DNA of 64,000 bases, taken from Vulcanisaeta souniana JCM 11219 (GTDB taxonomy: Archaea > Thermoproteota > Thermoprotei > Thermoproteales > Thermocladiaceae). The translations under genes were made by a program, and so were the position numbers. Below, piece by piece: positions 23,515-44,150 of this stretch; the first letter of the stretch is position 1, and each line of letters starts with the position of its first letter. The notes below the pieces were generated by a model. That model had not been told where the DNA came from, ran no database searches, and was given only the letters and a program-made list of their open reading frames with translations. Location of the stretch: positions 1,201,056 through 1,265,055 of the forward strand of contig NZ_AP026830.1 in the NCBI RefSeq assembly GCF_026000775.1, written 5' to 3'.

Positions 23515-23800
23515 CCTTAATTAGCCCATGAGTGCCTCGATTAGAATCGTGGCTTAGACTACTACTAGTGTACTACGGGATTCTACCATTCTACCAATTC
23601 TACCGCGCCTCTCTAGACTCTAGACTCTAGCCCCATCGTGAATCCCCCACGATAAACCCATGATAAAGAGTTAAACTAAAACCCTCTAGAAGCCTGGTAG
23701 AATTGGTAGAATGGTAGAATACCGTGACTGGGTTGTAGAATGACTAATTGACTCTTTACAATGTTTAAGAGGCTTCATTCAATCCCCCATTCCCTCTCGA
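23515..23800. repeat. Palindromic iteron locus A
   Basis: A gene-free region with a 30-bp inverted repeat (23575-23604 and 23696-23725, one mismatch). Each arm holds three TTCTACC units. It is flanked on the left by a 45-bp block (23515-23559) and on the right by a block from 23763. Both blocks recur in the same orientation at locus B (43850-44150), whereas the roughly 200 bp between them is in the opposite orientation to locus B. The right block still reads LNEAS-stop, the tail of the replication helicase, so locus A is a duplicate of the helicase 3' end and its palindrome. Candidate replication origin or recombination site. Confidence 0.8.
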
Positions 23801-23805
23801 GCTCT

Positions 23806-23824
23806 GCCCCGCCTACGGCGGGGC
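23806..23824. repeat. GC hairpin after the HAD gene
   Basis: GCCCCGCC-TAC-GGCGGGGC at the end of the HAD-phosphatase gene; member of the hairpin family. Confidence 0.75.
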
Positions 23825-24537
23825 TATGCCAGGTCCACCGTGGGGCTAGTCCAATCGTACTCCCTCTTTCCAAACCTGACCCTCATGCTTAGTACATCGA
23901 TTAGGACGCTGGAGGGGGATTGTGGCGAGGCTCCTGGGCAATCCAGGGCATAAGCCCAGTACTCATCGCCAGCCAGTGCAATCCTCAGTATGCCGAATGG
24001 GCTACACTTACTCGCTAGTGTATCACCATCAACATCAAGCCTCACCCAGCCAATGCCATTAACACTTGCATTGTACTCCCTAATGCCATTATTGACCAGC
24101 CACAGCCTGGGAATTGAGGCGTTAAATGCCTTGAGGGCATTGGCAATGCTGTCTAGGACCGTTGGGTTGTCATCGAGTACATGATTGATCCTAACGCCAT
24201 GGGCAGTGAGCCATATTGCCACTCGAGCCTTCCAATACGACTCCTTGGCGTACTTCCAGGACTCGGGCTTGAGGTAGATGCCCTTGACATTCAGGCCCAG
24301 GCTCTCGAGCTGTGAGGTAGTGGTGCTACCCTGCCTCTCCCTAATCCTGCCACTGGCGATGTAGACTGGCTCATTCAAGCTCTTGATGAAGCCAATAACA
24401 TCCTGCTTGGGCTTGTCAAGGCTCATGTACTCCTCGCTTAGGTAGCAGTCCCAATCCAGCTTCTCGCCCTTCATGCACCTTTGCACTCGGGCAGTAGTAT
24501 CAAAGAGTGTGTCATCTAGGTCGGCGAGAATGGGCAT
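23824..24537 (-). CDS. HAD-superfamily phosphatase, possibly polynucleotide 3'-phosphatase type
   Basis: 237 residues from ATG 24537 (octamer 24559-24566, 22 nt away). HAD motif I ADLDDTLFDT is at residues 5-14 with the two catalytic Asp, motif II is IASGR near 95, and the late acidic motif is HVLDDNP. Similar stand-alone HAD domains with LDDNP act in nucleic-acid end repair or nucleotide dephosphorylation; the substrate here is unknown. The gene sits between palindromic loci A and C, so a role in replication of the element is possible. Confidence 0.7.
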   Translation of the reverse strand: MPILADLDDTLFDTTARVQRCMKGEKLDWDCYLSEEYMSLDKPKQDVIGFIKSLNEPVYIASGRIRERQGSTTTSQLESLGLNVKGIYLKPESWKYAKESYWKARVAIWLTAHGVRINHVLDDNPTVLDSIANALKAFNASIPRLWLVNNGIREYNASVNGIGWVRLDVDGDTLASKCSPFGILRIALAGDEYWAYALDCPGASPQSPSSVLIDVLSMRVRFGKREYDWTSPTVDLA

Positions 24538-24573
24538 GGGAAAGCCCACAATGTGGGCTTAATTAGCTAGCGT

Positions 24574-24829
24574 GAGTAGCAAGTCGAGTAGCAGTTAGTG
24601 AGCAGTCGAGTGGCAATCGTGTAGCAGGTCGTGTAGTTGACGATCGTGCAGAAACTGGGGAGGGGTATATACCCCCTACTCACTCTACGGTTAATGATAA
24701 CGGGAGCATCAATAATGATAACCGTGACGTGGAAAAAACTAGCATATCTACCCCCAGACTCTTCTCACGATCGTCAGCTACTCGACTTGCTACTCGGTTG
24801 CTACTTAGTTGCTACTCGGACTGCTACTC
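24574..24829. repeat. Inverted iteron array (locus C)
   Basis: A 430-bp gap between divergent genes. The left arm (24574-24648) and right arm (24766-24829) are inverted copies built from several units close to GAGTAGCAA/GTCGAGTAGC, and both end inward at GACGATCGTG. The centre holds a GGGGTATATACCCC palindrome (24662-24675) and two direct copies of TAATGATAAC. Short open frames here are judged artefacts of the repeats. Iterons, palindromes and an A/T-rich centre fit a replication origin. Confidence 0.7.
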
Positions 24830-24994
24830 TCGGTTCCCCTTGTTCAGTTCCGCATTTAAGGTCCTCGTCAATGTTAATATTGATTGCATTCGCAAGCATT
24901 CCCAAAACTCTGGACTCCCAGGCTCGATACCCTTCACTCGAGCAAAATCAACGGAAGTTCTGGCTAATTAGGCCGGGAATGGGCATGCTAGTGC

Positions 24995-25357
24995 ATGCCT
25001 CTTGACTGCCTCATCAACGCCCTCTACAATCTACTAATGAATACCAAGGGCACAGTGTGGCTATGGCCCTCTAGACTGGCTAGGTCCTGTGGTCACAGGA
25101 GATTGGCGAGCGAGTTCCTAAGGGCTCTAGCCCTAGTGGGCTTGGTGGAGGCTGTGGGGTACAGGACGAGGAGGAAGAGGCTGGTCTACATTACAACGCC
25201 AGAGCTAGTCCTGAGGACTAGGGGGATGGGGCTTGACGAGTTTAGGGTGTGGCTACTCGGGAGGATTGCTCAAGCCCCGGCAGTGCCGGGGCTCGCGAGG
25301 AACTCAATCACGTCACTCGGGGTCTTGGCAATTACAGCCCTACCGCCCTGGATGTAG
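24995..25357 (+). CDS. Winged-helix-like small protein, 120 aa
   Basis: Basic N-terminal domain with the pattern of a winged helix (VWLWPSRLARSCGHRRLASEFLRALALVGLVEAV, split as helices 1-3, then a basic wing RTRRKRLVYIT). Octamer at 24964-24971, 24 nt from the ATG. The reading frame continues through the GC hairpin at 25274-25292 and overlaps the tail of the convergent vWA gene by 88 bp. The last 30 residues are therefore probably not conserved. Likely regulator of this locus. Confidence 0.55.
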   Translation: MPLDCLINALYNLLMNTKGTVWLWPSRLARSCGHRRLASEFLRALALVGLVEAVGYRTRRKRLVYITTPELVLRTRGMGLDEFRVWLLGRIAQAPAVPGLARNSITSLGVLAITALPPWM

Positions 25358-26649
25358 GGCTTTACCCAGTCAAAGTACTCGGCCGGTTCTAGTATGATGA
25401 TTCTACTCCTCTCCATGACCCTCCTAGCCAGCTCTGGGTCAACATCAGGGTCGATGGCGTCGGTAATGATAATGGACTCCTCACTAAGGCTATTGGCAAG
25501 GGTAAGGGCATTGGCGATGCTAGTGCCACCATCAGGGGCTAGCCTCAATAATGGCTCAATGACGATTGAGCCACTACCTAGGTCATGAATCCTCGTGTCG
25601 AAGGCATAAACATGGACATCCTCATAAGCCAGCACTAGGCTTATGGCTACTGCCGTAGCCACACTAACCTTCTCAATCCTAGAGCCCGGCATAGGCTCGC
25701 CCATGCTCCCGCTCCTATCAATAACCACGTTGAACCTACGCCCACTAACCCTCTCAAAACCATAATGAATCGTGGCTAGCCTAAGAGCCCTGACGGGCTC
25801 TGGCATTATCAAGTCCTTCACGGTGAATTCACTAATCCTATTAGAGAGTGTATAACTACTCGGGTAGCCAACGCCGGTGATCCTACCCTCGCTTAATCGG
25901 CTAGTGAACTCGTCAATCAACTTAACCACGTTGTTGAGGACCCTAGCCATCCTCCTCAACTCCTCGGGGCTTCCGAGGAGCGTGTCTGATGCCTCGAGAC
26001 CCTTGGAGTGACTCGGCATTAACTGGGCATTCGGGTACCTAGCCCTTAGTGAGGAAAGGGCATTCTCGAACTCGGCACGAGCCTGGACAGCCTCAAGCAC
26101 GTTCTTGGCAATAGCCCGCACTAGTAATTGGATTGCGGCCCTCTGTGTTTGGTTTAGGTTGGCTGGGGCCATTAGGAGGGCCTTGACGCTCAATTGCCTA
26201 CCCCTCGTGCCAGTATTGGCTAGGTTATTCATGCCCATTTTGGCGACTTCACGCCACTCCTCATCCCTCATGAACTCCCTCATGTTCCTGAGGACCAGCC
26301 TCAGGAACCAGACGCCAGTGTAGAAGCTTAGTGACTGGCTACCAGTCGTGTACGCCCTAATAACCCTCAATTCCCTACTCCTCCTATACTCATCCATTAT
26401 CACATGCCATAACAATTCTGGCCTCTCCCTATACCTAAGCACCTCAATGCTTAGATCATGAATACCATAGGCATCCGAAGCCATAAAGAGCTTGGGCCAC
26501 ATGTTACTCCCATCCCTGTACTTGCCTACAAAGTACTCAATCATCCCCTCAAGAATGTCAAAGGGTGGTGGGGTGACCCACCTAATGTACCCGTACTTCT
26601 CTATCGTACCCTTCTCATTACCATTATTGCCACTATCCCCAGGGGGCAT
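25270..26649 (-). CDS. von Willebrand factor A-domain protein (MoxR partner)
   Basis: 459 residues. The C-terminal third carries a vWA domain with MIDAS motif DRSGSMGE near residue 313 and later Thr/Asp positions (DGGTSIANAL, ITDAIDPD). The N-terminal part is helical, like CoxE/YehP-type proteins that work with MoxR AAA+ ATPases. A MoxR-type ATPase is encoded at 34176-35333 on the same element. Such pairs remodel or activate protein complexes. The C-terminal SPGTAGA is hairpin-encoded. Octamer at 26672-26679, 23 nt from the ATG. Confidence 0.8.
   Translation of the reverse strand: MPPGDSGNNGNEKGTIEKYGYIRWVTPPPFDILEGMIEYFVGKYRDGSNMWPKLFMASDAYGIHDLSIEVLRYRERPELLWHVIMDEYRRSRELRVIRAYTTGSQSLSFYTGVWFLRLVLRNMREFMRDEEWREVAKMGMNNLANTGTRGRQLSVKALLMAPANLNQTQRAAIQLLVRAIAKNVLEAVQARAEFENALSSLRARYPNAQLMPSHSKGLEASDTLLGSPEELRRMARVLNNVVKLIDEFTSRLSEGRITGVGYPSSYTLSNRISEFTVKDLIMPEPVRALRLATIHYGFERVSGRRFNVVIDRSGSMGEPMPGSRIEKVSVATAVAISLVLAYEDVHVYAFDTRIHDLGSGSIVIEPLLRLAPDGGTSIANALTLANSLSEESIIITDAIDPDVDPELARRVMERSRIIILEPAEYFDWVKPYIQGGRAVIAKTPSDVIEFLASPGTAGA
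25274..25292. repeat. GC hairpin encoding the vWA protein tail
   Basis: GCCCCGGC-AGT-GCCGGGGC; translated on the minus strand as PGTAGA just before the stop. Confidence 0.85.
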
Positions 26650-26667
26650 GGGATTGCGGTTTTAGAA

Positions 26668-26683
26668 CCAGCTAATTAGCTGG
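26668..26683. promoter_or_regulatory. Symmetric bidirectional promoter
   Basis: A perfect 16-bp palindrome, CCAGCTAATTAGCTGG, with the octamer at its centre. The start codons of the vWA gene and of 26702-26968 are each exactly 23 nt from the octamer edges. Confidence 0.75.
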
Positions 26684-26701
26684 CTCGCCAGGGCGAGCCT
26701 G

Positions 26702-26968
26702 ATGCTCCCAATACCACTGGTATTACCACACGTGGGGATTGCAATAATAATGGACCCAGGCGGGAACACCTGGGTATTAAGCATTAATGGCGTGGTAATC
26801 AACGGTAACGAGAGTACAATCCTACCACTACCACTGGGCGTGGAGGTAGCCTTTGGAGGCTACCCAAGGCCTGGGGAGGCCTGCACTATTGGTCCTCATT
26901 ACGCCATCATAAAAAGCGTGACCGTCTTCAGCATCCACTGCAGCAGGACTAGCCAGGCACTACCCTAA
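26702..26968 (+). CDS. Hypothetical beta-rich protein, 88 aa
   Basis: Family unknown; mostly short strands (WVLSINGVVINGN), two Cys, no clear membrane helix. Start supported by the symmetric promoter at 26668-26683. Confidence 0.5.
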   Translation: MLPIPLVLPHVGIAIIMDPGGNTWVLSINGVVINGNESTILPLPLGVEVAFGGYPRPGEACTIGPHYAIIKSVTVFSIHCSRTSQALP

Positions 26969-26997
26969 CTAATTAACTGGCTCTTGACTGCCAACCC

Positions 26998-27228
26998 ATG
27001 CCCACCGACATTGTTAAAATCAATGGTAAGGAATACGCGATAGTCTATGCCATTATTAATGGTGATATTATAATCTTTGATGTTGGTGAGGTGCACTACG
27101 CGCCTGGCGAGTCGTACATTATACCCACCACCCCAGGGGAGGTTAGGCTCGCCCTCAGTGAGTGGCGTAGGAGGCTTGTTGGCTTGAGGGATGGCTTGAA
27201 GCCAGCGCCCCGGCATTGCCGGGGCTAA
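26998..27228 (+). CDS. Hypothetical small protein, 76 aa
   Basis: Family unknown; a small beta-rich fold (VKINGKEYAIVYAIINGDIIIFDVG) followed by a helix. Octamer CTAATTAA at 26969-26976, 22 nt from the ATG. The last residues (PAPRHCRG) are read from the GC hairpin in a different frame from the PGNAGA type, and the stop TAA follows the hairpin immediately. Confidence 0.5.
   Translation: MPTDIVKINGKEYAIVYAIINGDIIIFDVGEVHYAPGESYIIPTTPGEVRLALSEWRRRLVGLRDGLKPAPRHCRG
27207..27225. repeat. GC hairpin at the end of a small gene
   Basis: GCCCCGGC-ATT-GCCGGGGC, inside the last codons of 26998-27228 and followed directly by its stop codon. Confidence 0.85.
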
Positions 27229-27277
27229 TTAATTGCTAGCCTTAATCATGCAATCACTGGCGATTAGCCCCGCCTAA

Positions 27278-27505
27278 TTAGTGGGGCTTGTCATACACGA
27301 TCCAGTGCGAGTCAGTGAATTCCACAATGCCAGCCCTCCCAAGCCTTTTAACGAGGCTCGTAATGAGCCTCCTAGCCACCTCGGTATCGCCGTTAGCGTA
27401 CTCCATGGCGAACCTCGCGATCTCGTACTTGGGAATCACGTTAATCCTACCCCTAACAAAACGCCTCTTGAAGTTAGTGTAGAAGCCCAGGTAGTCAATG
27501 GGCAC
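27278..27505 (-). CDS. Small winged-helix-like protein, 75 aa
   Basis: Layout of helices (EIARFAMEYANGDTEVARRL, LVKRLGRAGIVEF) and a final strand (HWIVYDK) fits a winged-helix DNA-binding domain. Family not identified. Octamer 27526-27533 lies 21 nt from the ATG and doubles as the stop region of the nucS gene. Confidence 0.5.
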   Translation of the reverse strand: MPIDYLGFYTNFKRRFVRGRINVIPKYEIARFAMEYANGDTEVARRLITSLVKRLGRAGIVEFTDSHWIVYDKPH

Positions 27506-27525
27506 GAGCGTGACTCACACCCACC

Positions 27526-28215
27526 CTAATTAGCCCCGGCGGTGCCGGGGCTTAAATCACTCGGGTCCAGGGTAACTAGTTGGAAGCCATACTCCCTAGC
27601 AAGCCTCCTGGCACCACTCGTGAAGCAGGGAGCCACTAGAATACCACCAGCATTGAGGGCATCCGCATAACGCCTCAACTGGCTCACTGCATGTAGGTCA
27701 GCGCACTGCCTCTTTACCTCAATGACGATTTTACGCCCGCTGGCGTCCTCCGCGAGGATATCGGCAATCCCATGGCCTGGGATCTCGTACTCCACGCTAA
27801 TGACCCTGCCCCCTGGAATGATCCTCTGGATATTCCTCACAATCCACTCCTTGACGTCCTCGTGAGTCCCAGTTAGCCTGAAGGCTCCCTCGCTTGGCAT
27901 GCCCCAGCATGCCCACTCTATACCATAGACAACCACCCTAATGACCTCCCTAGGCCTCTGCCTAGTGGAGTAAATGATGAGCTTGCCATCACTAGTCTCC
28001 GTCACGCTGATTCTGGAGCCTGGTGGTTGCCAGTTCATGGGTTGGTAGCCCTGGTCAGTGTGGATTAGTAGTGTGCCATCGGGCTTGATTATGATGAGCC
28101 TCCAAGCCCTACCAGCCCTCGAGACTGCCCTACCATCATAACTCACCTCAGAATCAGCGTATAGGACTATGACACTCCTGCCTATTTGACTGCGCCAATT
28201 ACCACCGCAGGGCAT
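27526..28215 (-). CDS. nucS: NucS/EndoMS-type endonuclease
   Basis: 229 residues. The C-terminal PD-(D/E)XK domain shows D152 in GIADIL, E167 and K169 in VIEVKR, and the highly characteristic ADLHAVSQLRRY directly after. The N-terminal part is the beta-rich DNA-binding domain. NucS (EndoMS) cuts both strands at mismatches or branched DNA and works with the sliding clamp. It is usually a chromosomal repair gene, so a copy on a mobile element is notable. The last residues SPGTAGAN are encoded by a GC hairpin and replace the expected C-terminal clamp-binding tail. Promoter GTAATTAG at 28236-28243, 21 nt away. Confidence 0.88.
   Translation of the reverse strand: MPCGGNWRSQIGRSVIVLYADSEVSYDGRAVSRAGRAWRLIIIKPDGTLLIHTDQGYQPMNWQPPGSRISVTETSDGKLIIYSTRQRPREVIRVVVYGIEWACWGMPSEGAFRLTGTHEDVKEWIVRNIQRIIPGGRVISVEYEIPGHGIADILAEDASGRKIVIEVKRQCADLHAVSQLRRYADALNAGGILVAPCFTSGARRLAREYGFQLVTLDPSDLSPGTAGAN
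27533..27551. repeat. GC hairpin encoding the NucS tail
   Basis: GCCCCGGC-GGT-GCCGGGGC, translated on the minus strand as PGTAGA. It abuts the octamer promoter of the next gene. Confidence 0.85.
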
Positions 28216-28239
28216 GCCCCGTCCTCGCGAGGCTCGTAA

Positions 28240-29136
28240 TTAGGTAATCACATCCAGGACCCTGAAGGCTCCAGCGTCCACGAGCCTCGCGAGGTAGTAG
28301 GCAATCGCGAGGGATAGGGAGTAGGCAACATCAAGCAGTGCGTCCCAGACGAAGGCGTGGAAGGCACTGATTGGCGAGCCACCAATCAGGTTGAAGGTGG
28401 TGGCCAGCGTGTTCCCAACCATTGCCAGGTAGTCTTGGAGTAGGCAGGTTGGCAAATTGGCTAGTGTGGACTGGAGTGGGTTGCAGGGGAAGTTGATGAC
28501 TACGACCTGGACGTAGGGTAGCTCCATTAGGACCATGCCCAGCATTACCGGGAGTGTTATGGCTAGTACCATGTACGTCATTGTAATGCTCGAGCCGATA
28601 CTCCTCGTACTCCTCGGCACAATGAGGCTCGCCGTGACTGCCCACAAGCCGTACTTAGTCATGTACTCGGTGAATAGGGTCATGACGTAGAGTACTGCCA
28701 AGTCTGCAATGAACCACTCGAAGGAGAGCCACTGGAGGCTCGTAATCCTCTCCATGAAGCCCGCCAAGGCCGATAGGAAGCCCAGCCTAAAGCCAAACGC
28801 CTCTATCGTGCCCAGGGCTTTTAGGGTGTAGACTATTGCCCAGAAGACTGCCCAGGATGTGGTGGACTCTGTGAGTAGGCTCTGGATGTAGGGGCTTGAG
28901 GGCTTGACTACGGGGATTCCGAAGGATGAGGCGATGGACTGGCTTATGACACCCGCATTCTGGAGTACTGCCACCACGCTAATGATTACAATCCACGCTA
29001 TAGCGTATGACCAGATTGCCTCCCACACTTCAGCCCTCTTTTGTGGTGGCGTGTAGTTGACCTTGATTATTAGGTAAGCCACTTCTGCAGTGGCTATTCC
29101 AGCAACCGTGTACCACCAGTTGTAGGACACGAGCAT
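28240..29136 (-). CDS. Polytopic membrane protein, candidate VirB6/TrbL-like channel component
   Basis: About 298 residues with some seven or eight hydrophobic helices and two Cys in an outside loop (FPCNPLQSTLANLPTC). No diagnostic motif. Size, topology and the company of VirB4-like and VirB11-like ATPases suggest the inner-membrane channel of a conjugation-type apparatus, as in archaeal Ced/Ted-like systems; this is inference. The octamer at 29152-29159 favours ATG 29136 or GTG 29130 over ATG 29148, which is too close. Confidence 0.6.
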   Translation of the reverse strand: MLVSYNWWYTVAGIATAEVAYLIIKVNYTPPQKRAEVWEAIWSYAIAWIVIISVVAVLQNAGVISQSIASSFGIPVVKPSSPYIQSLLTESTTSWAVFWAIVYTLKALGTIEAFGFRLGFLSALAGFMERITSLQWLSFEWFIADLAVLYVMTLFTEYMTKYGLWAVTASLIVPRSTRSIGSSITMTYMVLAITLPVMLGMVLMELPYVQVVVINFPCNPLQSTLANLPTCLLQDYLAMVGNTLATTFNLIGGSPISAFHAFVWDALLDVAYSLSLAIAYYLARLVDAGAFRVLDVIT

Positions 29137-29162
29137 CACCACACTCATGCTCTAATTAGGAG

Positions 29163-29186
29163 TCTGACCTCCTCCCCGCCCTAAAG
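29163..29186 (+). repeat. Truncated IS200/IS605-type end
   Basis: CTGACCTCCTCCCCGCCCTAAAGG matches the solo end at 8384-8402 and the TnpB right end at 43430; the second half of the hairpin is missing. It overlaps the 3' end of 29181-29453. Confidence 0.4.
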
Positions 29187-29453
29187 GTAGATGAGGCACC
29201 TCTTCATCCTGCTCTTGCCACACTCGTAGCCTGTGATCCTACCAGCCCGCTTGAACTCCTCAAGCACCTCCTCTATCCTACCCATCATCCCACTCACCGA
29301 GTATGCTGATACCCTGTAGCCCCTCATCCCCAGGAACCGCGTGAAGTCCCTAGTCGTTATCTTGACCACGCTGGCATTCCTAACATTCGCCAGGTAATCA
29401 TTCCTATGCTCCAGCACGTACCTAATGAACTCCCTGAGTAAAACCCTATACAC
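29181..29453 (-). CDS. Small DNA-binding-like protein, 90 aa (paralog of 43473-43829)
   Basis: Helical with a conserved block FIRYVLEHRNDYLANVR then KITTRDFTRFLGMRG. The second half of this block matches KFSTRDFHKWLVSRG of the gene at 43473-43829, with the same spacing to an upstream helix. Probably a winged-helix regulator family of this element. The stop lies at the edge of an IS-end remnant, so the C-terminus may be altered. Confidence 0.55.
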   Translation of the reverse strand: MYRVLLREFIRYVLEHRNDYLANVRNASVVKITTRDFTRFLGMRGYRVSAYSVSGMMGRIEEVLEEFKRAGRITGYECGKSRMKRCLIYL

Positions 29454-29500
29454 GCGTGAGGCACCCTCACGCCCTAATTAGAATACCATTAGCCCTGCTA

Positions 29501-30853: not shown

Positions 30854-30892
30854 CGGGCATACTAATTAATACACCAACAAGCCCCAACCCAC

Positions 30893-31447: not shown

Positions 31448-31478
31448 TTAGGAGCCTTCAGGCTAAACCCCGACCCCT

Positions 31479-32635: not shown

Positions 32636-32657
32636 GAATACCCTGGAGTGGTAGCCC

Positions 32658-32665: not shown

Positions 32666-32686
32666 GCTTGTTGGGAGTACTAGCTG

Positions 32687-34175: not shown

Positions 34176-35333
34176 TTAACTCCTAGCCCTTGCTAGCCTC
34201 CCGGCATTCTCCTCCGCCCTCTTACTGAGCCACGAGACACGCCACTCTAGAAAGTCCACTAGGAATGAGTACCACCTCTGGTACCTCAAGACATCAGCAA
34301 TATCATTGATAGTATTCTCGTAACCAGCCAAGTCCATTGGCTCCATGGCTAGCACCTTAGCCTCGTACCTCATGAAGACCCTCACGGCACTCACTAGAGC
34401 CATGAAGTCGTTCCTAGCCATCTTGAGGCTCTCCCTTACAGAGTCCTCTGGACTAGCCCTATACTCCTCAGGCAATTGTAGGCTGGAGCCAATGACCCAG
34501 GGCATTACGAGGAATGCCGTGTACGTGGTACAACCCTTCTGCTCCGCTGGGCAGTCAAGCAAAGCCATTAGGCTGGCAATGACCCTGGGTAGCTTTGTGA
34601 ATAGGGTCCTATCGCTAATCTTGACCCCGAACTCCCTAAGCCCAGCAATCCCCTGGGTAATTAACAAGTACTCGTCAGTGAACCCATCACTCCCCAAAAT
34701 CTCCAACGCCCTAGTCCTCAACTCCCCAAGCTCCTGGGGAGTTATAATACCACTGGGTGTCTCCTGAGAGTCATTACTAACCCTAAGTGCCTCACCGTAG
34801 AATTCTGGACTCACGTAATCAACGCTGGCCTTGATTGGGAACCTATCCGCAAAGGCCATTAACTCAGGCGATTGTGGTATATAATTCGAGGCCCCGTAAA
34901 TCGCGAATGCCCTGATCGGCATTACCTCCCCAGTGAATGGGTCGTAGATGAGGCGCTCGTTGAGCATACTGTTGAGGGCATTAAGTAGGAATGACGGTGC
35001 ATTAAAGACCTCATCGAGGTATATGACATCAGCACTAATGATTGGCGACCAATTCCTAACCAAACGCCCATCCTGGAGTGCCCTTACATTATACGGACCA
35101 AAGACCTCCACGTCAGTCATGTACTTGTGGAGCTGTATGATGTACGCCTTGGCATTAACCATCCTCGCGAGGCTCGTTATCAAGAGCGTCTTTCCAGTGC
35201 CTGGTGGCCCCACTAGTAGTACTGGCTCCCCATGTATTAGTCCGCTCAAGCTCGCGAGGCCAGCCTCATGCTGGCCTGGGAGGCGTCTAAAGAGCCATCG
35301 GTATGCGAGTCTAACACCCGGTGCACCGGGCAT
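34176..35333 (-). CDS. MoxR-type AAA+ ATPase
   Basis: 385 residues from ATG 35333, 23 nt from octamer TTAATTAG (35356-35363); the longer frame to 35372 begins beyond the promoter. Walker A VGPPGTGKT at 41-49, Walker B VIYLDEVFNAP near 104, sensor 1 YGASNY, and MoxR-like features (FADRFPIK). MoxR ATPases act as chaperones or activators together with vWA proteins; the likely partner is the vWA protein at 25270-26649, about 7.5 kb away. Such pairs activate metalloenzymes, virus-defence or secretion complexes; the target here is unknown. Confidence 0.85.
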   Translation of the reverse strand: MPGAPGVRLAYRWLFRRLPGQHEAGLASLSGLIHGEPVLLVGPPGTGKTLLITSLARMVNAKAYIIQLHKYMTDVEVFGPYNVRALQDGRLVRNWSPIISADVIYLDEVFNAPSFLLNALNSMLNERLIYDPFTGEVMPIRAFAIYGASNYIPQSPELMAFADRFPIKASVDYVSPEFYGEALRVSNDSQETPSGIITPQELGELRTRALEILGSDGFTDEYLLITQGIAGLREFGVKISDRTLFTKLPRVIASLMALLDCPAEQKGCTTYTAFLVMPWVIGSSLQLPEEYRASPEDSVRESLKMARNDFMALVSAVRVFMRYEAKVLAMEPMDLAGYENTINDIADVLRYQRWYSFLVDFLEWRVSWLSKRAEENAGRLARARS

Positions 35334-35405
35334 GGTGGAGTTGGCATGCCAGGGCTTAATTAGCCCTAGCATACTAATTTAAATACGGGCGTATAATACA
35401 CTCGT

Positions 35406-35798
35406 ATGACTAATCACGCGATTAATAATGCCAGCCCCGGCAATGCCGGGGCTAGGTATGGAATCGTGAGGGTGAAGGCAATAATTGATACTAGCCAGGG
35501 GATTCCAGAGGCTAGGGGCTTCATTTACGATCCAAGAAGGGGTGATTGGGTCGAGATTAGCGAGGATGATGCGGGCTATATTCAGGATAATGGCGTGTTG
35601 ATTGGCGGTGGATTCACGTGGCACGGCGTGATTGGATTGTACGCAGTGCCCAGGGAGAGGCTGGGCAGGTTCAGGAGGTACGTTGTCGAGTGGATTAGTG
35701 AATTACCGAAGAGGCCACTCATTGTTGATGAGGGTGTTAGGGTTAGGGTCTCGAGGGATGAGTTTGGGAATACTCATGCTTTTATTGAGAAGTTGTAG
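35406..35798 (+). CDS. Hypothetical protein with a hairpin-encoded N-terminus
   Basis: 130 residues, family unknown. Start ATG 35406 fits TATA-like TTAAATA at 35379-35385 (21 nt). Residues 10-16 (SPGNAGA) come from the GC hairpin at 35433-35453, normally found at gene ends, so either the hairpin moved into the 5' end or the true start lies after it. The rest is alpha/beta with an RGFIYDPRRGDWVEI block. Confidence 0.5.
   Translation: MTNHAINNASPGNAGARYGIVRVKAIIDTSQGIPEARGFIYDPRRGDWVEISEDDAGYIQDNGVLIGGGFTWHGVIGLYAVPRERLGRFRRYVVEWISELPKRPLIVDEGVRVRVSRDEFGNTHAFIEKL
35433..35453. repeat. GC hairpin in the 5' end of a gene
   Basis: AGCCCCGGC-AAT-GCCGGGGCT, 27 nt after the presumed start codon of 35406-35798; the only family member found near a 5' end. 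Confidence 0.8.
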
Positions 35799-35846
35799 GA
35801 ATTTTAAGGACCCCTGTGGGGTCCTCCCCTGCCCTCCCGGGGTGGG

Positions 35847-36242: not shown

Positions 36243-36317
36243 GTGGGTCTAAGGTAACGAGGTAGAAACCCCCTAATTAGCTCTAGAGGGCGAGGCATAA
36301 GTCTAATTAAGGGGGCT

Positions 36318-37001: not shown

Positions 37002-37011
37002 ATGGTATCAC

Positions 37012-37398: not shown

Positions 37399-37423
37399 AC
37401 TAGCCAATTCCATGGCTAGACAC

Positions 37424-37798
37424 TTAATTAGTAATCCTAACCCTCAAGCCAAGCCTCCCAGCCAAATCCACAATCCTCAAGCCAGTACTAGCCTCGAAGA
37501 GCCTCGCATCATCGAGGCTAATACAATACTCGCCATCACCACCGGGAGCGAGTAACTGCCTAAAGGCCTCTATGGGGTCCCTCCTTATGAGGACTGACTT
37601 CTTACTAACCCAGTGGACAGCGAGCCCCATTAATTGGCATGCCCTAATGAAGCACTGCATGGTGGCCTTCTCCCCAAGGAACATCCTCAACTCACTCCTC
37701 GAGACCTTCCACCCAGCCTCCGGGTGCCTAATGTTAGCGAGGAATCTAGGCTCGCTAGTAACACGCCTCACGAAGTCGAGGTACACCCCACAAACCAC
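37424..37798 (-). CDS. Hypothetical DNA-binding-like protein, 124 aa
   Basis: The start is placed at GTG 37798, 23 nt from octamer TTAATTAG at 37821-37828; the longer frame to 37942 runs into the VirB4-like gene. The pattern FVRRVTSEPRFLANIR...VSRSELRMFLGEKATM resembles the helix-turn-helix part of the 29181 and 43473 proteins. Function not known. Confidence 0.5.
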   Translation of the reverse strand: MVCGVYLDFVRRVTSEPRFLANIRHPEAGWKVSRSELRMFLGEKATMQCFIRACQLMGLAVHWVSKKSVLIRRDPIEAFRQLLAPGGDGEYCISLDDARLFEASTGLRIVDLAGRLGLRVRITN

Positions 37799-37824
37799 GC
37801 TCTCAAGTGGGAGCACGGTATTAA

Positions 37825-39885
37825 TTAGGCTAGGACCAAATCCTCGAGCCTCACGTAAACGTGCCTTGGGGTTGGAGGCACGTAGAGCACACCCATGGAG
37901 TAACCACCAAGCACCCTGGGCGTTAATGACTTCCTCAACCACTCGTAATCACTAGCCGATAAGCCGAAGTACGGCTTGACCTCCTCAACATACGCATCGG
38001 GGCCAGCCAGGACTAGGCCCCAGCCAATATTCTGGATCATGCTGGGTGGGGCATCACGCACCGACTGCGTGGCGAACCAGAGTGCCAGGCCCCTTTTCCT
38101 CCCAGCCCTGATTAATTGCCAAATAGCCCTGGAGCCCAGGACTAGGTAGGCCTCATCGGCAATGAGGACATTAGTCACCAACTCGCTGGGTGACTTCCTG
38201 GCTAGGAATGCCCTGAATGCCTCTGTAATGAGTAACTCCATTACTAGGGCCACGTACCTATCATCCTGCCTGAGGGTACGCCCGCTATCCCTATCAGTGA
38301 ATTTAATGACGACATTATACTCAAGCAGTTCATCGAGGCTCACCAGTTGACTCGGTAGTAAGCCCCTTACAATGCGCCAGTACCTCGCGTACTGGCTATT
38401 ATTGACTAGCCACTCTAGCGCCCACGCCAAGCCCTGGTATGGCATGCTGTAGAGCCTGTAGATAGCCTCATCCTCAACACCAAACGCGTGCCTGAATGCC
38501 TCCGCAACATCACTAGCCTTGACCACTGGCTCCTCGTGATTGGGGGCTAGAAAGTCAATGTAGGCATCACCAGCGTAGAGGCAGTGGAAGCCGAGTTTGG
38601 CTAGGACTTGGCAGTACTCGTCCTCGGGGTCCAGGATTAGGAACCTAATGCCCGAGTTATTACTAACGAGCCTGTGAATGAGGCTCATTGTAGTCTTAGT
38701 CTTACCCATCCCAGTGGGGCCAACAATTAGGCCGTGACTCGAGGGTAGGGCATCGAAGTCCAGGTGGACTGGATTATTATACCTATCAATCCCAACCTCG
38801 ATGACTGCACGCCCAAGCCCACTGGTGACCTGGGCACCATGCAAAATGGGCATGACTGTGATGTCCCTGGTGAGGGCTGGGAGTCTCGGTGGCCAGAGCC
38901 AGTTAATGGGCCTCCCAATCCTCGTGTTCGGGATTGGGTTATAATCCGCATCAAGCCAGATGCTGATCCTATACGTACGCTCGCCATTATTTAGCCTTTG
39001 GATTGTATTCCAAAGCCTCTCACTCCTGACCTCGTACCTACCCCTCACTCGCGTCACAGCCTTTTCACGAAATGATGCGTAAGCCCTCTCCAGGGCACCC
39101 CTAAGCACTGGGTCCTCCCTAACCACAATACCCCAAGCCGGGAGCTGGGCAATACTCATCGCGTAAGTATAGGCATCATTATTAGTATACATTGAATAGA
39201 GTAAGTCCGTACCCGCGAGGCTAGCCCTGAACCTAATGGGGCTCCTAACAATCGAGAGCCCCTTAACACCCCTCACGAAGCCGATTGCGAAGCCCGCTAG
39301 GGCTACTACACCATAGTACCAATTGTGGGCTAGTGGCGCCCCGGTGAGTAGGAGTAGTGGAATGCCGAGGAATAGCCAGTACATGGGCACTGGCTCTATC
39401 ACGCCGATTAACTGCTCCATAACATTCTGGGGTAGCTCCTCAAGCCTGAAGTACTGCATTAGTAGGGGCTTGACCCCCTCGAACTCGCCCCTATCCATGT
39501 ACCCAACCCTCAATACCTTGAGGGTTTGACCACCAAGCCTAAGCTTGAAGAAGCCCAGCTCGAGGCTAGCCAGGCTAAGCCTATTGAGGAGCTCGGCGAG
39601 TACGTCAATGACCCTAACCCCACTCGTGGAAATATCCTCAAGAGGCTCGAATTTATAGAACTCGAGCCACACTCCATCAGCCCTCTTTATAGCCCTCCTA
39701 AAGGCGCCGGCAACCTCGATTTTGGGGGCCAGGGAGTCCCCGTAGACGAGGCTCAGTAGCCACTGGGCCCAGTCTGGGATTAGGGCTAGGCTAATGCCCA
39801 GTAGTGGGGCTAGGGGCTTGTAGGCAATCGCCGAGACTAGTAGGGTAATTACTAGTACCCTCCTCGCTAGTCCAACGTCAACCAT
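37825..39885 (-). CDS. VirB4/TraE-like membrane-associated ATPase
   Basis: 686 residues. Three to four N-terminal hydrophobic helices (about 8-45 and 165-205) precede a VirB4-type body. Walker A GPTGMGKTKTT is near residue 392 and Walker B NVLIADEAYLVLG near 573, followed by RKRGLALWFATQSV, typical of VirB4/HerA ATPases. VirB4 proteins energise pilus assembly and DNA transport in conjugation, and archaeal relatives include CedB. Promoter TCTAATTACC at about 39906-39915. It overlaps the upstream HerA-like gene by 8 bp. Confidence 0.82.
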   Translation of the reverse strand: MVDVGLARRVLVITLLVSAIAYKPLAPLLGISLALIPDWAQWLLSLVYGDSLAPKIEVAGAFRRAIKRADGVWLEFYKFEPLEDISTSGVRVIDVLAELLNRLSLASLELGFFKLRLGGQTLKVLRVGYMDRGEFEGVKPLLMQYFRLEELPQNVMEQLIGVIEPVPMYWLFLGIPLLLLTGAPLAHNWYYGVVALAGFAIGFVRGVKGLSIVRSPIRFRASLAGTDLLYSMYTNNDAYTYAMSIAQLPAWGIVVREDPVLRGALERAYASFREKAVTRVRGRYEVRSERLWNTIQRLNNGERTYRISIWLDADYNPIPNTRIGRPINWLWPPRLPALTRDITVMPILHGAQVTSGLGRAVIEVGIDRYNNPVHLDFDALPSSHGLIVGPTGMGKTKTTMSLIHRLVSNNSGIRFLILDPEDEYCQVLAKLGFHCLYAGDAYIDFLAPNHEEPVVKASDVAEAFRHAFGVEDEAIYRLYSMPYQGLAWALEWLVNNSQYARYWRIVRGLLPSQLVSLDELLEYNVVIKFTDRDSGRTLRQDDRYVALVMELLITEAFRAFLARKSPSELVTNVLIADEAYLVLGSRAIWQLIRAGRKRGLALWFATQSVRDAPPSMIQNIGWGLVLAGPDAYVEEVKPYFGLSASDYEWLRKSLTPRVLGGYSMGVLYVPPTPRHVYVRLEDLVLA

Positions 39886-41038
39886 TACCCGCCATTACCT
39901 GCCTCTGGTAATTAGACATGCAGTCCCAGAGCTCTGGGTAGTCACTCAAGTCCCTAATCCTATCAACCCACTTACCAGCAACCCTCGCCTTGTAGTAAAT
40001 ATAACGCCTCTTAATGGAATCCTCGAGGTTAGCCCTCGAGAGGCACTCGAACCAGTCGACACCACGCCTTTTCAAGGCGTTAAGACTCCTCACGTCAACG
40101 TCCACGAAGTCCCTGAGTACAGGCTCCTCATCAGCCCTCGAGACCCTAGCCAGCCTAGCCAACTCGGGGTCAGTGACGTAGACCTCAACCAACGCCTTCC
40201 TCGGGGTTGAGGACCTCCTAAAGTCGACAATCACCTTGAACACATCCATCATCCTCTCTGGGATAGCCCTGGCATTCTGGGTGATGGCAATAAAGAGAAA
40301 ACCATAATTACGGGCAATACGAACAGCCTCCTCCAGTGGGCTAATACCCTCTACACCAGCGAAGTACTGCGCCTCGTCGACAACCACGAAACGCCAGTCG
40401 CCAGCCTCAACCTCGCGCCTGGCCATTATGGTCAAGAGTGTAGTCACGTAGAGGAGCACCTGCTTCAGACTAAAGCCCCTGAGTCTAATGCCCAATTGGG
40501 CATTCAGTTTGCCATCGAGCCAATCCCCTAGTACTGGGTGGGTCCTCCTCGCGAAGAGTATATTATTCGCGAGCTCATTAAGCCTACGCCTCGCGCCCCT
40601 GAGCGCCGCCAGCTCGTCAGCATTCCTGAAGTAGCCAGGTCCCTCTGTAAAGAGCCACTGGAGGGCGTGGGGTATACTATACTCGGGCCCCTCCTCACCC
40701 TCCCCACTGGAGATTGCGGACTCCTCGAATGCCGTGAGGAGGACCTCCTCCATTGCCGGGCTCATGGCGTTAGCATAACCGTAGGCGACTAGAATCACCT
40801 TAGCCAGTGCGTCAATGAAGTCCTGGGGCTTCACGAACTCGAGTGGGTTTACTGGGTAAACCCCGTAGTAATCCACGAAGCCCCTGTAATTACCCACGTA
40901 ATCAAAGACTAGGGCTGGCTTCCTATTCTGGGCTAGGGCTATTCTGACTAGGCTCGTCTTCCCAGCCCCTGGACGCCCGATAACGAGCGTGTGAGCCTCA
41001 TTCCTAACCGCAATGTCCAATAAATCCCCAGGCTTCAT
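39878..41038 (-). CDS. HerA/VirD4-like P-loop ATPase
   Basis: 386 residues. Walker A IGRPGAGKTSL at about 21-31, Walker B FVVVDEAQYF near residue 218, then FLFIAITQNARAIPE, the order seen in HerA/FtsK and VirD4 coupling proteins. There is no membrane helix. With the VirB4-like gene just downstream (8-bp overlap) it probably delivers DNA to the transfer channel or resolves DNA ends. The start overlaps the stop of the upstream gene by one base. Confidence 0.78.
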   Translation of the reverse strand: MKPGDLLDIAVRNEAHTLVIGRPGAGKTSLVRIALAQNRKPALVFDYVGNYRGFVDYYGVYPVNPLEFVKPQDFIDALAKVILVAYGYANAMSPAMEEVLLTAFEESAISSGEGEEGPEYSIPHALQWLFTEGPGYFRNADELAALRGARRRLNELANNILFARRTHPVLGDWLDGKLNAQLGIRLRGFSLKQVLLYVTTLLTIMARREVEAGDWRFVVVDEAQYFAGVEGISPLEEAVRIARNYGFLFIAITQNARAIPERMMDVFKVIVDFRRSSTPRKALVEVYVTDPELARLARVSRADEEPVLRDFVDVDVRSLNALKRRGVDWFECLSRANLEDSIKRRYIYYKARVAGKWVDRIRDLSDYPELWDCMSNYQRQVMAGNG

Positions 41039-41484
41039 TACCTCACCATTATATTGGACAGTCCCAGTTTATTCAGGACTGAGTTTATGACCAGCGCCGA
41101 TGCCTGGCACGCCCTGCACTTGAAGCCTCCAATCCAGCAGGGCTTGAGGAGTCTAGCCAGTCTTATTGTCTTCCCATCCTCGTGGGCGAGCCACACGAGG
41201 ACTGGCCTCGAGTAATGAGCCTCGTAGTCCATGTGGCTCAAGCCAAGCTTGATTGGGTCCGTAATGGGCTTCCTGAGCCTGTAGGCAATGAGCATGTACC
41301 CGGCTTGGACTGCATCGACTAGTTCACTAATCACGGTCTCCGAGTCACTGAGGAGCCCATAGGGGCAGTTTAGGGCTTGGATTGTGGCGTTTACTACAGT
41401 ATCACTATCGTGAACATCCGCACTCCCGCGCATTATGACTAGGAATCCCCCATCGGTTGGGAGGTACTTTACCCCAATGCCCAT
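41038..41484 (-). CDS. Hypothetical protein, 148 aa
   Basis: Family unknown. Starts at ATG 41484, exactly 23 nt from the octamer at 41507-41514. Three Cys in CWIGGFKCRACQ could bind a metal. First gene of the operon that continues with the HerA-like and VirB4-like ATPases, so probably a cytosolic transfer accessory. Confidence 0.55.
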   Translation of the reverse strand: MGIGVKYLPTDGGFLVIMRGSADVHDSDTVVNATIQALNCPYGLLSDSETVISELVDAVQAGYMLIAYRLRKPITDPIKLGLSHMDYEAHYSRPVLVWLAHEDGKTIRLARLLKPCWIGGFKCRACQASALVINSVLNKLGLSNIMVR

Positions 41485-41506
41485 TATCGCGGACCCGCTA
41501 ATTGGG

Positions 41507-41514
41507 CTAATTAG
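41507..41514. promoter_or_regulatory. Symmetric bidirectional promoter octamer CTAATTAG
   Basis: Start codons at 41484 (minus) and 41537 (plus) are each 23 nt from the octamer edge. It drives the conjugation-type ATPase operon on one side and an AbrB-like regulator on the other. Confidence 0.75.
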
Positions 41515-41536
41515 GATTGGCCGTAACCCGGAATTA

Positions 41537-41854
41537 ATGGTCAGGAGGGGTGCAAGGGGCTTTAACGTGACGAGCATGCCCTACGAGGCTAGGGTCTACA
41601 TTAATAATCAAGTCCTAGTACCAGCCAGCTTGAGTAGGGCACTGGGCATTAATCATTATAGGAATGCCATCATCACGATAGAGTACAATGGCTTTAGGAC
41701 TCAATTTAGGGTGAAGCTCCTTAGGACTAGGAATACTGACTCGAGGCAGTTCACGATTCCGAGGAGTGTTAGGGAGGCTTATGGGATTAAGCCCCTCGAT
41801 ACCGTGAGGGTGGTTAGTATTGAGCCAGGCAATGGCGAGAAGGCTACTGGGTAG
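41537..41854 (+). CDS. AbrB/SpoVT-like DNA-binding protein, tandem domains
   Basis: 105 residues with two beta-alpha-beta units: ARVYINNQVLVPASLSRALG and later SRQFTIPRSVREAYGIKPLD followed by TVRVVSIEP. The second is a clear AbrB swapped-hairpin signature. It is expressed from the promoter shared with the transfer-ATPase operon, so it is a good candidate for that operon's regulator. Confidence 0.7.
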   Translation: MVRRGARGFNVTSMPYEARVYINNQVLVPASLSRALGINHYRNAIITIEYNGFRTQFRVKLLRTRNTDSRQFTIPRSVREAYGIKPLDTVRVVSIEPGNGEKATG

Positions 41855-42003
41855 CCTCCTCATCAGCCTAGCCATCATCCACAATGGCAGGGTCATTGAG
41901 CGTTATGGTAGCGAGTACGCTGGGTACATCGACCTCCTGAACATTGCCGATGACTATAATGCCGACGTGGTCTTGATAATGAGGGATAGGGCTGTCATTC
42001 TGA
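41832..42003 (+). pseudogene. Small gene interrupted by the TnpB insertion
   Basis: The frame from ATG 41832 encodes about 57 residues (MARRLLGSLLISL..., ending VVLIMRDRAVILT) before the insertion. Joining the bases left of the insertion (ending CTGAC) to those right of it (TTTTTTGTGA) would give ...AVILTFL-stop, and a GC hairpin (43477-43493) follows, just like other gene ends here. The original protein was therefore about 59 residues. As it stands, the frame reads on into the insertion end. Family unknown. Confidence 0.55.
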
Positions 42004-42170
42004 CGGCTCCCCGCCCTTCAGGGCGGGGGTTCTTCCCCTGGGGCTTCCCTCACACTTCAGGCGCCCCTCACCGGGGAGGCATCAGTGCTCAGTCCCCGCC
42101 GTCAGCTGCGGGCGGTAGGTAGCTCATCGTCTGTTAGACTCGCTACCTACCAACTCTAAGAATAATAAGA

Positions 42171-42196
42171 ACCACAAAGTTTTTAAATTTTGTGGT
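42171..42196. promoter_or_regulatory. Inverted repeat around the promoter of the AbrB-tnpB pair (copy 1)
   Basis: ACCACAAA (42171-42178) and TTTGTGGT (42189-42196) bracket the TATA-like TTTTTAAAT; the mini-gene starts at 42210. The position fits an autoregulatory operator. Confidence 0.5.
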
Positions 42197-42209
42197 CTTC
42201 ATTTAACAT

Positions 42210-42359
42210 ATGGGTGTGGAATTAGTTTTTAGAGGAAGAATCGCAAGCCATGGGAAAGGCAGGTACATAATAACTATCCCTAAGGAGTTTTCAGAAAAGG
42301 CGAGGGAACTCTACGAAAAAAATGAGGAGGTGATAATAATTGTCGCAAAGGAAGGTTGA
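42210..42359 (+). CDS. AbrB-like mini-protein preceding tnpB (copy 1), 49 aa
   Basis: Open frame of 49 codons: MGVELVFRGRIASHGKGRYI, then ITIPKEFSEKARELYEK and EEVIIIVAKEG. It is a single AbrB/SpoVT swapped-hairpin unit. It overlaps the tnpB start by 20 bp in a different frame, and its last codons contain the GGAGGTGAT ribosome-binding site of tnpB. A homologous mini-gene precedes the second TnpB gene at the same place. Probably a repressor or expression coupler of TnpB. Confidence 0.75.
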   Translation: MGVELVFRGRIASHGKGRYIITIPKEFSEKARELYEKNEEVIIIVAKEG

Positions 42360-43461
42360 AGAGGGGTTTAGGATCCTAACACTAGAGGCAAATGTCGACA
42401 GAGAGGTTATAGAGTTTATTAGGCAATATCAAGTGCTAGCCTCCCACCTGTATTGGGCTAAAAGGCTGGGGATTCAGCCTTCAGATGCTGTTATGCAAAG
42501 AGTAAAAGAGGGTATAAAGAGCTACTGGAGGTGGCAGATAATTAACGAGAAAGACCCAATATACTTGTTTAAAGGCATCGAGAAGACTCCCATGCCATAT
42601 TCCGTTGTTCTTAAGCTACCATTAGTAGACGCTTTGCATGAGAACAAGGGTGCTTTCATAAGAGATGGGAAACTAGTGCTAAGATTAAATAAAAAGGTGG
42701 AAATAACAATTCCACCTCGTGCCTTAGAGTGGCTGAACAAGAGGTTAGCTGAGAAGCCGGACAGGAAAACTGTAAGGGTGTTCGAAAGAGGTGGGAAACT
42801 AGTGGCACAGATAGTGTTGCATAAAAAGAACGAGGTAGTTCCTCCTAAAAACCCACTCCTCGTGGTTGTCGACCTTAACAGTTCACATGGAATTGTGGTG
42901 CATTATTGGGATGGGAAACTGATTAAGACGGAGAAATACAGACCGCCTAATAGGGCTGGGGGATGGATTACTGTTAAGCGTCTGATGGAAATCAGGGATA
43001 ACCTGTATAATCAGGGGTGTATAACGCAAGCTCAGATAAACAAGTACTCGGCTATAATTAGGAGGACGTTAAGCGGGAGTGTGAAAAGTTGGGTTCAGCA
43101 GACCGTGGATAGGATTGTCATGAGGGTTAGGAGGATTGCCAGGAGGCATGGTAAGGATCCCTTAGTATTAATTGATATTCCAGATGACGAGGGCTTAAGA
43201 GGAACGAGGCTGCAGAGGACGTTACTATCGTTTGCAAAACATTTGGAGAATATACTATCATGGTATGGCATTTATTGGGAAGAGAAGAGGCTATACAGTA
43301 CGATTTGCCCTAATTGCGGGGGTAAGCTCAGGCTAAGGAAGGCTACGAGGCGTATGAGGATAATGGAGTGCCCTAAATGCAGGTTTGAGGGAGAAAGAGA
43401 CATCATACCACTACACTGGGCATTAAAATACCTCCCCGCCATGAATGGCGAGGCTTCCTAA
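42340..43461 (+). CDS. tnpB: TnpB-family RNA-guided nuclease (IS200/IS605), with zinc ribbon
   Basis: 373 residues from TTG 42340, preceded by GGAGGTGAT. The RuvC-like domain shows VVVDLNSSHG near 174 (first Asp) and LIDIPDDEG near 282 where the catalytic Glu is expected. The C-terminal zinc ribbon CPNCGGKL...CPKC lies near 322-346, followed by Asp in GERDIIPLHWAL. The middle acidic residue is not in the usual (F/I)E context, so activity is uncertain. The last residues (YLPAMNGEAS) are encoded by the right-end hairpin. Confidence 0.8.
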   Translation: MSQRKVEEGFRILTLEANVDREVIEFIRQYQVLASHLYWAKRLGIQPSDAVMQRVKEGIKSYWRWQIINEKDPIYLFKGIEKTPMPYSVVLKLPLVDALHENKGAFIRDGKLVLRLNKKVEITIPPRALEWLNKRLAEKPDRKTVRVFERGGKLVAQIVLHKKNEVVPPKNPLLVVVDLNSSHGIVVHYWDGKLIKTEKYRPPNRAGGWITVKRLMEIRDNLYNQGCITQAQINKYSAIIRRTLSGSVKSWVQQTVDRIVMRVRRIARRHGKDPLVLIDIPDDEGLRGTRLQRTLLSFAKHLENILSWYGIYWEEKRLYSTICPNCGGKLRLRKATRRMRIMECPKCRFEGERDIIPLHWALKYLPAMNGEAS

Positions 43462-43472
43462 CTTTTTTGTGA

Positions 43473-43829
43473 CTAGGCCCGAGGCACTCGGGCTCGGTCT
43501 CCTAAGCCTCGAGAGGCTTGGTGAGGCATTCCTTGAGGAGCCCTTTGAGGTTGAGTCCATCTAGCAATGTAGTAATGAGTCACGGCACCGTGGCTCCTAG
43601 CCACCAGCCTCAAGCCCAGCCTCTCGAGGGCTCCTGGCAAGTACATGGCCAGCCTGAGGGACGCACTGACCTTGCCTGGCATAGCCAAGCCCCTCGAAAC
43701 GAGCCACTTGTGGAAGTCCCTCGTGCTGAACTTGAAGATGCCGTCACGCTTGATGTTAACCCTATAATGCGGGTTATCAACGACCTCCTCCCTCAAGAAC
43801 TCGATGACCAGCTCGTACCAGTCAAGCAC
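43473..43829 (-). CDS. Small DNA-binding-like protein, 118 aa (paralog of 29181-29453)
   Basis: GTG 43829 is chosen because it is 23 nt from octamer TTAATTAG at 43852-43859; ATG 43835 is 17 nt away. Helical N-terminal domain with KFSTRDFHKWLVSRG, shared with the 29181 protein, then VSASLRLAMYLPGALERLGLRLV and a strand. The C-terminal tail (QRAPQGMPHQASRG) is low-complexity and partly encoded by a hairpin (43477-43493). It lies beside palindrome locus B and the replication helicase, so it may bind the origin. Confidence 0.55.
   Translation of the reverse strand: MLDWYELVIEFLREEVVDNPHYRVNIKRDGIFKFSTRDFHKWLVSRGLAMPGKVSASLRLAMYLPGALERLGLRLVARSHGAVTHYYIARWTQPQRAPQGMPHQASRGLGDRARVPRA
43477..43493. 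repeat. GC hairpin separated from its gene by the TnpB insertion
   Basis: GCCCGAG-GCA-CTCGGGC, directly after the FL-stop codons that belong to the interrupted gene at 41832; also covers the last codons of the minus-strand gene. Confidence 0.65.
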
Positions 43830-43849
43830 GCCCATGCAGTGGCTCCCCG

Positions 43850-44150
43850 CCTTAATTAGCCCATGAACTCCTCGATAAGAATCGAGAATTAGACAATGTA
43901 AAGAGTTATTTAGGCATTCTACAACCTAGTCACGGGATTCTACTGTTCTACTGATTCTACTGCGCCTTTTAGGGGTATTAGTTAAATTCTTATTGTAAGC
44001 CACGTTCAATTCCCCTATTTCAATTCCCCATAAGCCCACGATAGCCAGAAAAACTGGCACTCTCTTAGAGTGCAGTAGAATCAGTAGAACAGTAGAATCC
44101 CGTAGTACACTAGTAGTAGTTTAAGACGCCTCATTCAACTCCCCATTACT
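43850..44150. repeat. Palindromic iteron locus B
   Basis: A perfect 32-bp inverted repeat (43932-43963 and 44072-44103), each arm with three TTCTACT units, enclosing about 108 bp. The left flank (43850-43894) and the right flank (from 44119) match locus A in direct orientation. The core between them, including single-copy side sequences such as TACTACTAGTGTACT, matches locus A only as its reverse complement. It lies immediately behind the replication helicase, whose last codons form the right flank. Likely origin of replication or site-specific recombination site. Confidence 0.85.

What the first reader, a model, noticed from the sequence alone, without database searches (positions are those of the whole stretch)
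23515..44150. Two iteron palindromes whose cores are inverted between direct-orientation flanks
Loci A (23515-23800) and B (43850-44150) share left flanks of 45 bp and right flanks in the same orientation, yet the ~200-bp core between them is reverse-complemented. Examples: TACTACTAGTGTACT lies left of the palindrome in A and right of it in B; the GGTTGTAGAATG...ACTCTTTACA block lies right in A and left in B. Break points fall at TTAGAC and GTTTAA, themselves weakly inverted. This implies site-specific inversion or replication-linked flipping of an origin-like module.
Basis: seen in the sequence. Interest (0 to 1): 0.88.

Follow-up and report, generated by a model that had tools for sequence, protein, structure and literature searches.

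The report
Archaeal plasmid origin that flips orientation
A plasmid built into a heat-loving archaeon's chromosome carries two copies of what looks like its replication start site, and the whole ~200-base module is reversed in one copy; two relatives also differ from each other in its orientation, so the site seems to have turned around more than once.

Summary
Cores A (23560-23762) and B (43895-44118) match as reverse complements (36/40 and 35/40 at the two ends, against 15/40 and 10/40 direct), while the flanks match directly (38/46 and 25/30). The switch falls within a few bases of TTAGAC and GTTTAA. The modules lie in a 46.5-kb integrated plasmid-like element in tRNA-Lys of a Vulcanisaeta-group archaeon. 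B sits directly behind a rep gene (putative helicase initiator), whose stop codon overlaps the GTTTAA repeat; beside A the right flank reads in frame as a relic of the rep C-terminus. Two other Vulcanisaeta species carry one module each behind rep, in opposite orientations to each other. Site patterns in the four cores reject the one tree that allows a single flip (2 sites against 19 and 13), so at least two inversions occurred at the same boundary. Best explanation: a symmetric iteron origin of the SaPI/SCC 'downstream of rep' layout, occasionally inverted between short terminal inverted repeats (11 bp, perfect, in one relative) by a hairpin or template-switch event. A programmed recombinase switch is not excluded but has no positive evidence. 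Origin function and flipping in living cells are inferred.

The parts
3377..3421 (+). attL: 3' half of tRNA-Lys(ttt), 45-bp direct repeat
   Evidence: tRNA; exact 45-bp repeat
49806..49850 (+). attR: second copy of the 45-bp tRNA-Lys segment; element spans 3377-49850
   Evidence: synteny with relative G004 stops at 3426 and resumes at 50199
3532..4824 (+). tyrosine integrase of the element
   Evidence: PF00589 E=1.4e-10, PF16795 E=2.1e-8
23503..23559 (+). left (distal) flank of A, ends TTAGAC
   Evidence: 57 nt, 81% identical in direct orientation to 43838-43894
23554..23559 (+). left boundary repeat of A, TTAGAC
   Evidence: switch from direct to reverse-complement homology
23560..23762 (-). 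core A, 203 bp, reversed relative to core B
   Evidence: model R1 hit on - strand, 219 bits
23575..23612 (+). iteron arm 1 of A (3x TTCTAC)
   Evidence: inverted repeat I3
23688..23725 (+). iteron arm 2 of A (3x GTAGAA); a lone fourth iteron at 23735
   Evidence: inverted repeat I3
23763..23768 (+). right boundary repeat of A, GTTTAA, overlapping the relic rep stop codon
23763..23798 (-). relic of a rep C-terminus, in frame as ...NGGLNEAS-stop
   Evidence: read from the sequence; DNA similarity to B 23.0 against shuffle maximum 13.5
43838..43894 (+). left (distal) flank of B, ends TTAGAC
43895..44118 (+). core B, 224 bp
   Evidence: model R1 hit on + strand, 230 bits
43932..43963 (+). iteron arm 1 of B (3x TTCTAC); lone iteron at 43917
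   Evidence: inverted repeat I5, 100% complementary over 32 nt
44072..44103 (+). iteron arm 2 of B (3x GTAGAA)
   Evidence: inverted repeat I5
44119..44124 (+). right boundary repeat of B, GTTTAA, overlapping the rep stop codon (TCT TAA AC on the - strand)
44121..46373 (-). rep gene, 750 aa: putative P-loop replication helicase (Walker A GRGGEGKTT, LILDEQ, TNVxF)
   Evidence: motifs read; homologues beside the same module in G002 and G009
46348..47019 (-). overlapping upstream ORF, possibly the primase part (no family match)
   Evidence: no hit in Pfam, PHROGs or NCBIfam; the G009 Rep has an N-terminal Prim-Pol domain

Best explanation
A and B are replication-origin modules of a 46.5-kb integrated plasmid. 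Each has two inverted arrays of three TTCTAC iterons around a central loop, plus two unlike outer ends; the Rep encoded next to B is expected to bind the iterons and open the loop. Because the arrays are symmetric, the origin should work either way round. The whole core is bounded by short terminal inverted repeats (CTTAAAC...GTTTAAG; 11 bp, CTTAAACTTTG, in G002) placed at the rep stop codon and at the distal flank. The core has been inverted between these repeats at least twice, most likely when the palindrome was extruded as a hairpin/cruciform or copied by template switching during replication. A is a duplicated origin whose rep is gone except for its last codons. Shown: the two-sided inversion between A and B, both orientations relative to rep among relatives, at least two events, and the boundary repeats. 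Inferred: origin function, the hairpin route, and that flips are neutral.
For: Sharp two-sided switch of homology (statistics). B lies directly behind rep; G002 (Vulcanisaeta sp. JCM 16159) and G009 (V. distributa JCM 11217) each hold one module directly behind the homologous rep. Orientation: in B and G002 the GTGTAC end adjoins the rep stop; in A and G009 the TGTAAAG end does. Site patterns: AB|G2G9 19, AG2|BG9 13, AG9|BG2 2; only the last tree would need a single flip. G002 has a perfect 11-bp terminal inverted repeat that forms the base of its predicted hairpin (z -9.8). Iteron arms covary: 8 of 38 pairs with two-sided changes, 94.7% paired against 28-45% when slid. The more distant Rep of G021 also has an inverted iteron array (TTCTCC) just downstream. 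Outer ends about 15-50 bp outside the arms move with the core, so recombination between the arms alone cannot be the cause.
Against: Only four modules are known. In the window the boundary repeat is just 6 bp with one mismatch, and in G009 it is degraded. The two leading splits (19 and 13) conflict, so exchange between origins also occurred. For G002 against G009 the far side of the inversion rests on a short shared motif. No experimental evidence of origin activity or of flipping. Rep is assigned by motifs and context: profile comparison with DUF927/Cch helicases gave nothing beyond the P-loop and the structure model was poor.
Confidence: 0.62

Rival explanations
1. A programmed site-specific inversion: a tyrosine recombinase (the element's integrase or a host Xer-like enzyme) flips the core at the short terminal inverted repeats, as in a phase switch.
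For: Conservative, near base-exact junctions; recurrent flips at the same place; the element has a tyrosine integrase; archaeal tyrosine recombinases are reported to catalyse inversions (PMC8371274).
Against: The integrase's own site is the tRNA-Lys segment, unrelated to CTTAAAC. The repeats are 6-11 bp, shorter than a dif site (two 11-nt arms and a 6-nt spacer). No second recombinase was found among the proteins scanned. No gene or promoter is obviously switched.
Confidence: 0.15
2. Cassette exchange: co-resident plasmids swapped whole origin cores by homologous recombination, and one core went in the other way round; the inversion is a by-product of shuffling.
For: The arms of A are like G002 (36/36 left arm) while its outer right end is like B (22/23), so cores are mosaics.
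Against: A core entering in reverse needs crossovers in the 6-11 bp end repeats anyway; the arms are inside the breakpoints and cannot mediate it.
Confidence: 0.15
3. A and B are not origins but paired protein-binding or regulatory palindromes (for example conjugation or partition sites) that happen to sit by rep.
For: No origin assay; A has no intact rep beside it; the element also has ParA-like and conjugation-like ATPases.
Against: Always directly downstream of rep in three species, the position of SaPI origins (PMC7581432); the iteron arrangement matches arrays found beside bacterial primase-helicase genes.
Confidence: 0.08

Closest known systems
SaPI / SCCmec origins (iterons directly downstream of the Rep or Cch helicase gene; PMC7581432)
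   Same: Short iterons directly after the stop codon of a helicase initiator in an integrated mobile element.
   Different: Archaeal host, no detectable DUF927 or D5 family match for Rep, and the whole origin found in both orientations.
Small hairpin-associated inversions of chloroplast genomes (review PMC12371153; Kelchner and Wendel 1996 cited there)
   Same: Inversions linked to hairpin structures; a recurrent case is cited in that review (Catalano et al. 2009).
   Different: Those are typically 4-50 bp; here the whole 200-bp origin core, itself holding a palindrome, is turned.
Phase-variable invertible switches (fim-type, recalled from general knowledge)
   Same: Short inverted repeats around a few hundred bp.
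   Different: No dedicated recombinase or switched promoter found.
Hairpin flip/flop of parvovirus termini (recalled from general knowledge)
   Same: A palindromic replication origin found in two orientations between fixed flanks.
   Different: Here the module is internal to an integrated, presumably circular, element, with no evidence of hairpin ends.

Membership tests
Iteron origin downstream of a self-loading Rep helicase (SaPI/SCC layout) | Repeated short binding motifs | tested here: met
   3+3 inverted TTCTAC iterons in all four modules apart from a one-base change in G009; an extra single iteron in A, B and G002
Iteron origin downstream of a self-loading Rep helicase (SaPI/SCC layout) | Located directly downstream of the initiator helicase gene | tested here: met
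   B, G002, G009; stop codon overlaps the boundary repeat
Iteron origin downstream of a self-loading Rep helicase (SaPI/SCC layout) | Initiator belongs to the DUF927/Cch or D5/Primase_Cterm families | tested here: not met
   No Pfam match for the window Rep; hhalign to DUF927+HTH_56 proteins probability 0.6%, P-loop only. It works like one; it is not filed as a member.
Iteron origin downstream of a self-loading Rep helicase (SaPI/SCC layout) | Rep binds the iterons and replication starts there | not testable with these tools
   needs binding and replication assays
Prim-Pol/helicase replication proteins of archaeal plasmids | N-terminal Prim-Pol domain | tested here: inconclusive
   Present in the G009 homologue (PF09250, 5.3e-8); not detected in the window Rep or its upstream ORF
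Site-specific invertible element | Inverted repeats at the ends | tested here: met
   CTTAAAC/GTTTAAG, 11 bp perfect in G002
Site-specific invertible element | Dedicated recombinase | tested here: inconclusive
   Only the tRNA-directed integrase found; no other recombinase in the scanned proteins; small ORFs not all scanned
Site-specific invertible element | Both orientations within one population | not testable with these tools
   no reads available

The most novel reading that the evidence does not exclude
The origin is actively turned over during replication in each plasmid lineage, by hairpin resolution or by a recombinase acting on the CTTAAAC repeats, so that both orientations coexist in a population as a flip/flop origin of an archaeal plasmid.
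Probability: 0.13. Interest if true: 0.78.

Novelty: new variant of a known kind. Interest (0 to 1): 0.52.

Why it matters
Replication origins of archaeal plasmids, above all in the Thermoproteales, are little known. This defines a concrete candidate origin and initiator pair in three Vulcanisaeta species and shows that a palindromic origin can be inverted as a unit at a fixed boundary more than once. That makes the question of how short inverted repeats around an origin recombine directly testable with long reads and a simple plasmid assay.

Tried and rejected
Searches for more copies: none in IMG/VR by pattern or by Rep, none in plasmid or phage records by Rep, and in 81 class genomes only the four known modules plus one weak match (G064, E=0.037) that was not followed up. 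Recombination between the iteron arms was rejected because the breakpoints lie outside the arms. Inversion of the 20-kb segment between A and B was rejected because flanks L and R are direct in both. Assembly duplication was rejected because A and B differ by about 20-30%. Rep structure prediction was too poor to search with (pLDDT 47). PDB sequence searches gave nothing useful. G039 Rep homologue: no iteron palindrome found nearby.

Full report
Observation. Aligning 23500-23820 with 43840-44160 shows three blocks: left flanks in direct orientation, cores in reverse complement, right flanks in direct orientation. The change is sharp. At the left edge of A the direct match is 38/46 outside and 15/40 inside, while the reverse-complement match is 17/46 outside and 36/40 inside; the right edge behaves the same way, 25/30 direct outside and 35/40 reverse complement inside. 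The edges are TTAGAC and GTTTAA, which stay with the flanks in both copies. All core scores far exceed shuffled controls. The genome holds just these two copies.

Setting. A 45-bp exact repeat of the tRNA-Lys 3' half at 3377-3421 and 49806-49850, a tyrosine integrase at 3532-4824 and a synteny break in a complete relative define an integrated element of about 46.5 kb. It carries VirB11-like and VirB4/HerA-like ATPases, a ParA-like protein, a Cas4-like protein and a NucS-like nuclease.

What the modules are. B lies directly behind a 750-aa ORF with a P-loop (GRGGEGKTT), LILDEQ and TNVxF motifs, read here as a replication helicase. Homologues in G002 and G009 have the same module directly behind them; the G009 protein has a Prim-Pol domain. 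The rep stop codon TAA overlaps the CTTAAA(C) boundary in all three. Beside A the same reading frame gives NGGLNEAS-stop against NGELNEAS-stop of the intact rep, so A looks like an origin left behind when its rep was lost. The arms covary across the four sequences. A distant Rep in G021 is followed by its own palindromic array with a TTCTCC motif. Origins directly downstream of a helicase initiator are known from SaPIs and proposed for SCCmec (PMC7581432). Origin function here is therefore likely but not shown.

The flips. Written with the TGTAAAG end on the left, all four cores align end to end. Relative to rep, B and G002 have one orientation, A and G009 the other. Informative sites favour AB|G2G9 (19) or AG2|BG9 (13) and nearly exclude AG9|BG2 (2). 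Only the last tree would allow one inversion, so at least two happened. The A/B case is two-sided. In G002/G009 the rep side is clear (proximal flanks score 30 against a shuffle maximum of 16), while the far side shares only a short GTTTAAG-S-CACGG motif. G002 keeps a perfect 11-bp inverted repeat at the two ends, which forms the base of its predicted hairpin. This is a plausible substrate for inversion by hairpin extrusion or template switching. Recombination within the iteron arms cannot explain it, because the non-palindromic outer ends turn with the core.

Mechanism and rivals. I favour rare, neutral inversion of a symmetric origin through its terminal repeats. A dedicated recombinase is possible; the junctions would fit, but the repeats are short, the only recombinase found has a tRNA target, and nothing obvious is switched. 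Core exchange between plasmids clearly contributed, since arms and ends of A have different nearest relatives.

Novelty. The origin layout is known in bacteria; an iteron origin in both orientations at a fixed boundary beside rep was not found in the papers searched, which is a limited search. I rate it a new variant of a known kind.

Noticed in passing
L072, L075, L082, L100 (DUF927 + HTH_56), L090 (VapE), L099 (DUF5906), L047 (DnaG-type primase), L060 (Toprim): In bacterial and phage contigs the same iteron spacing (GTAGAA-N3-GTAGAA-N2-GTAGAA), often as inverted arrays, sits beside primase or Cch-type helicase genes: the same GTAGAA word as in these archaeal modules.
   Followed up: partly
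L030:10539-10700: The G021 Rep homologue is followed by an inverted array with TTCTCC instead of TTCTAC, suggesting a changed binding specificity.
   Followed up: partly
window 3377-49850: 46.5-kb element integrated in tRNA-Lys, with VirB11-like and VirB4/HerA-like ATPases, ParA-like protein and a 1015-aa putative methyltransferase/restriction protein at 5284-8331; it may be conjugative.
   Followed up: partly
window 42340-43461 and 47899-48972: Two TnpB-like ORFs in the element; no TnpA was noticed beside them.
   Followed up: no
window 34176-35372 and 25270-26649: MoxR-type ATPase and a weak VWA-domain protein in the same element.
   Followed up: no
window 20269-20296, 25266-25293, 27199-27226, 35426-35453 and others: Recurrent short hairpin AGCCCCGGCANTGCCGGGGCT at gene ends, probably terminators or a small repeat family (family D1).
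   Followed up: no
L016:9304-9860 and L029:690-2900: The rep genes of both JCM draft genomes are split by frame changes near the 3' end; it could be sequencing error or decay.
   Followed up: no
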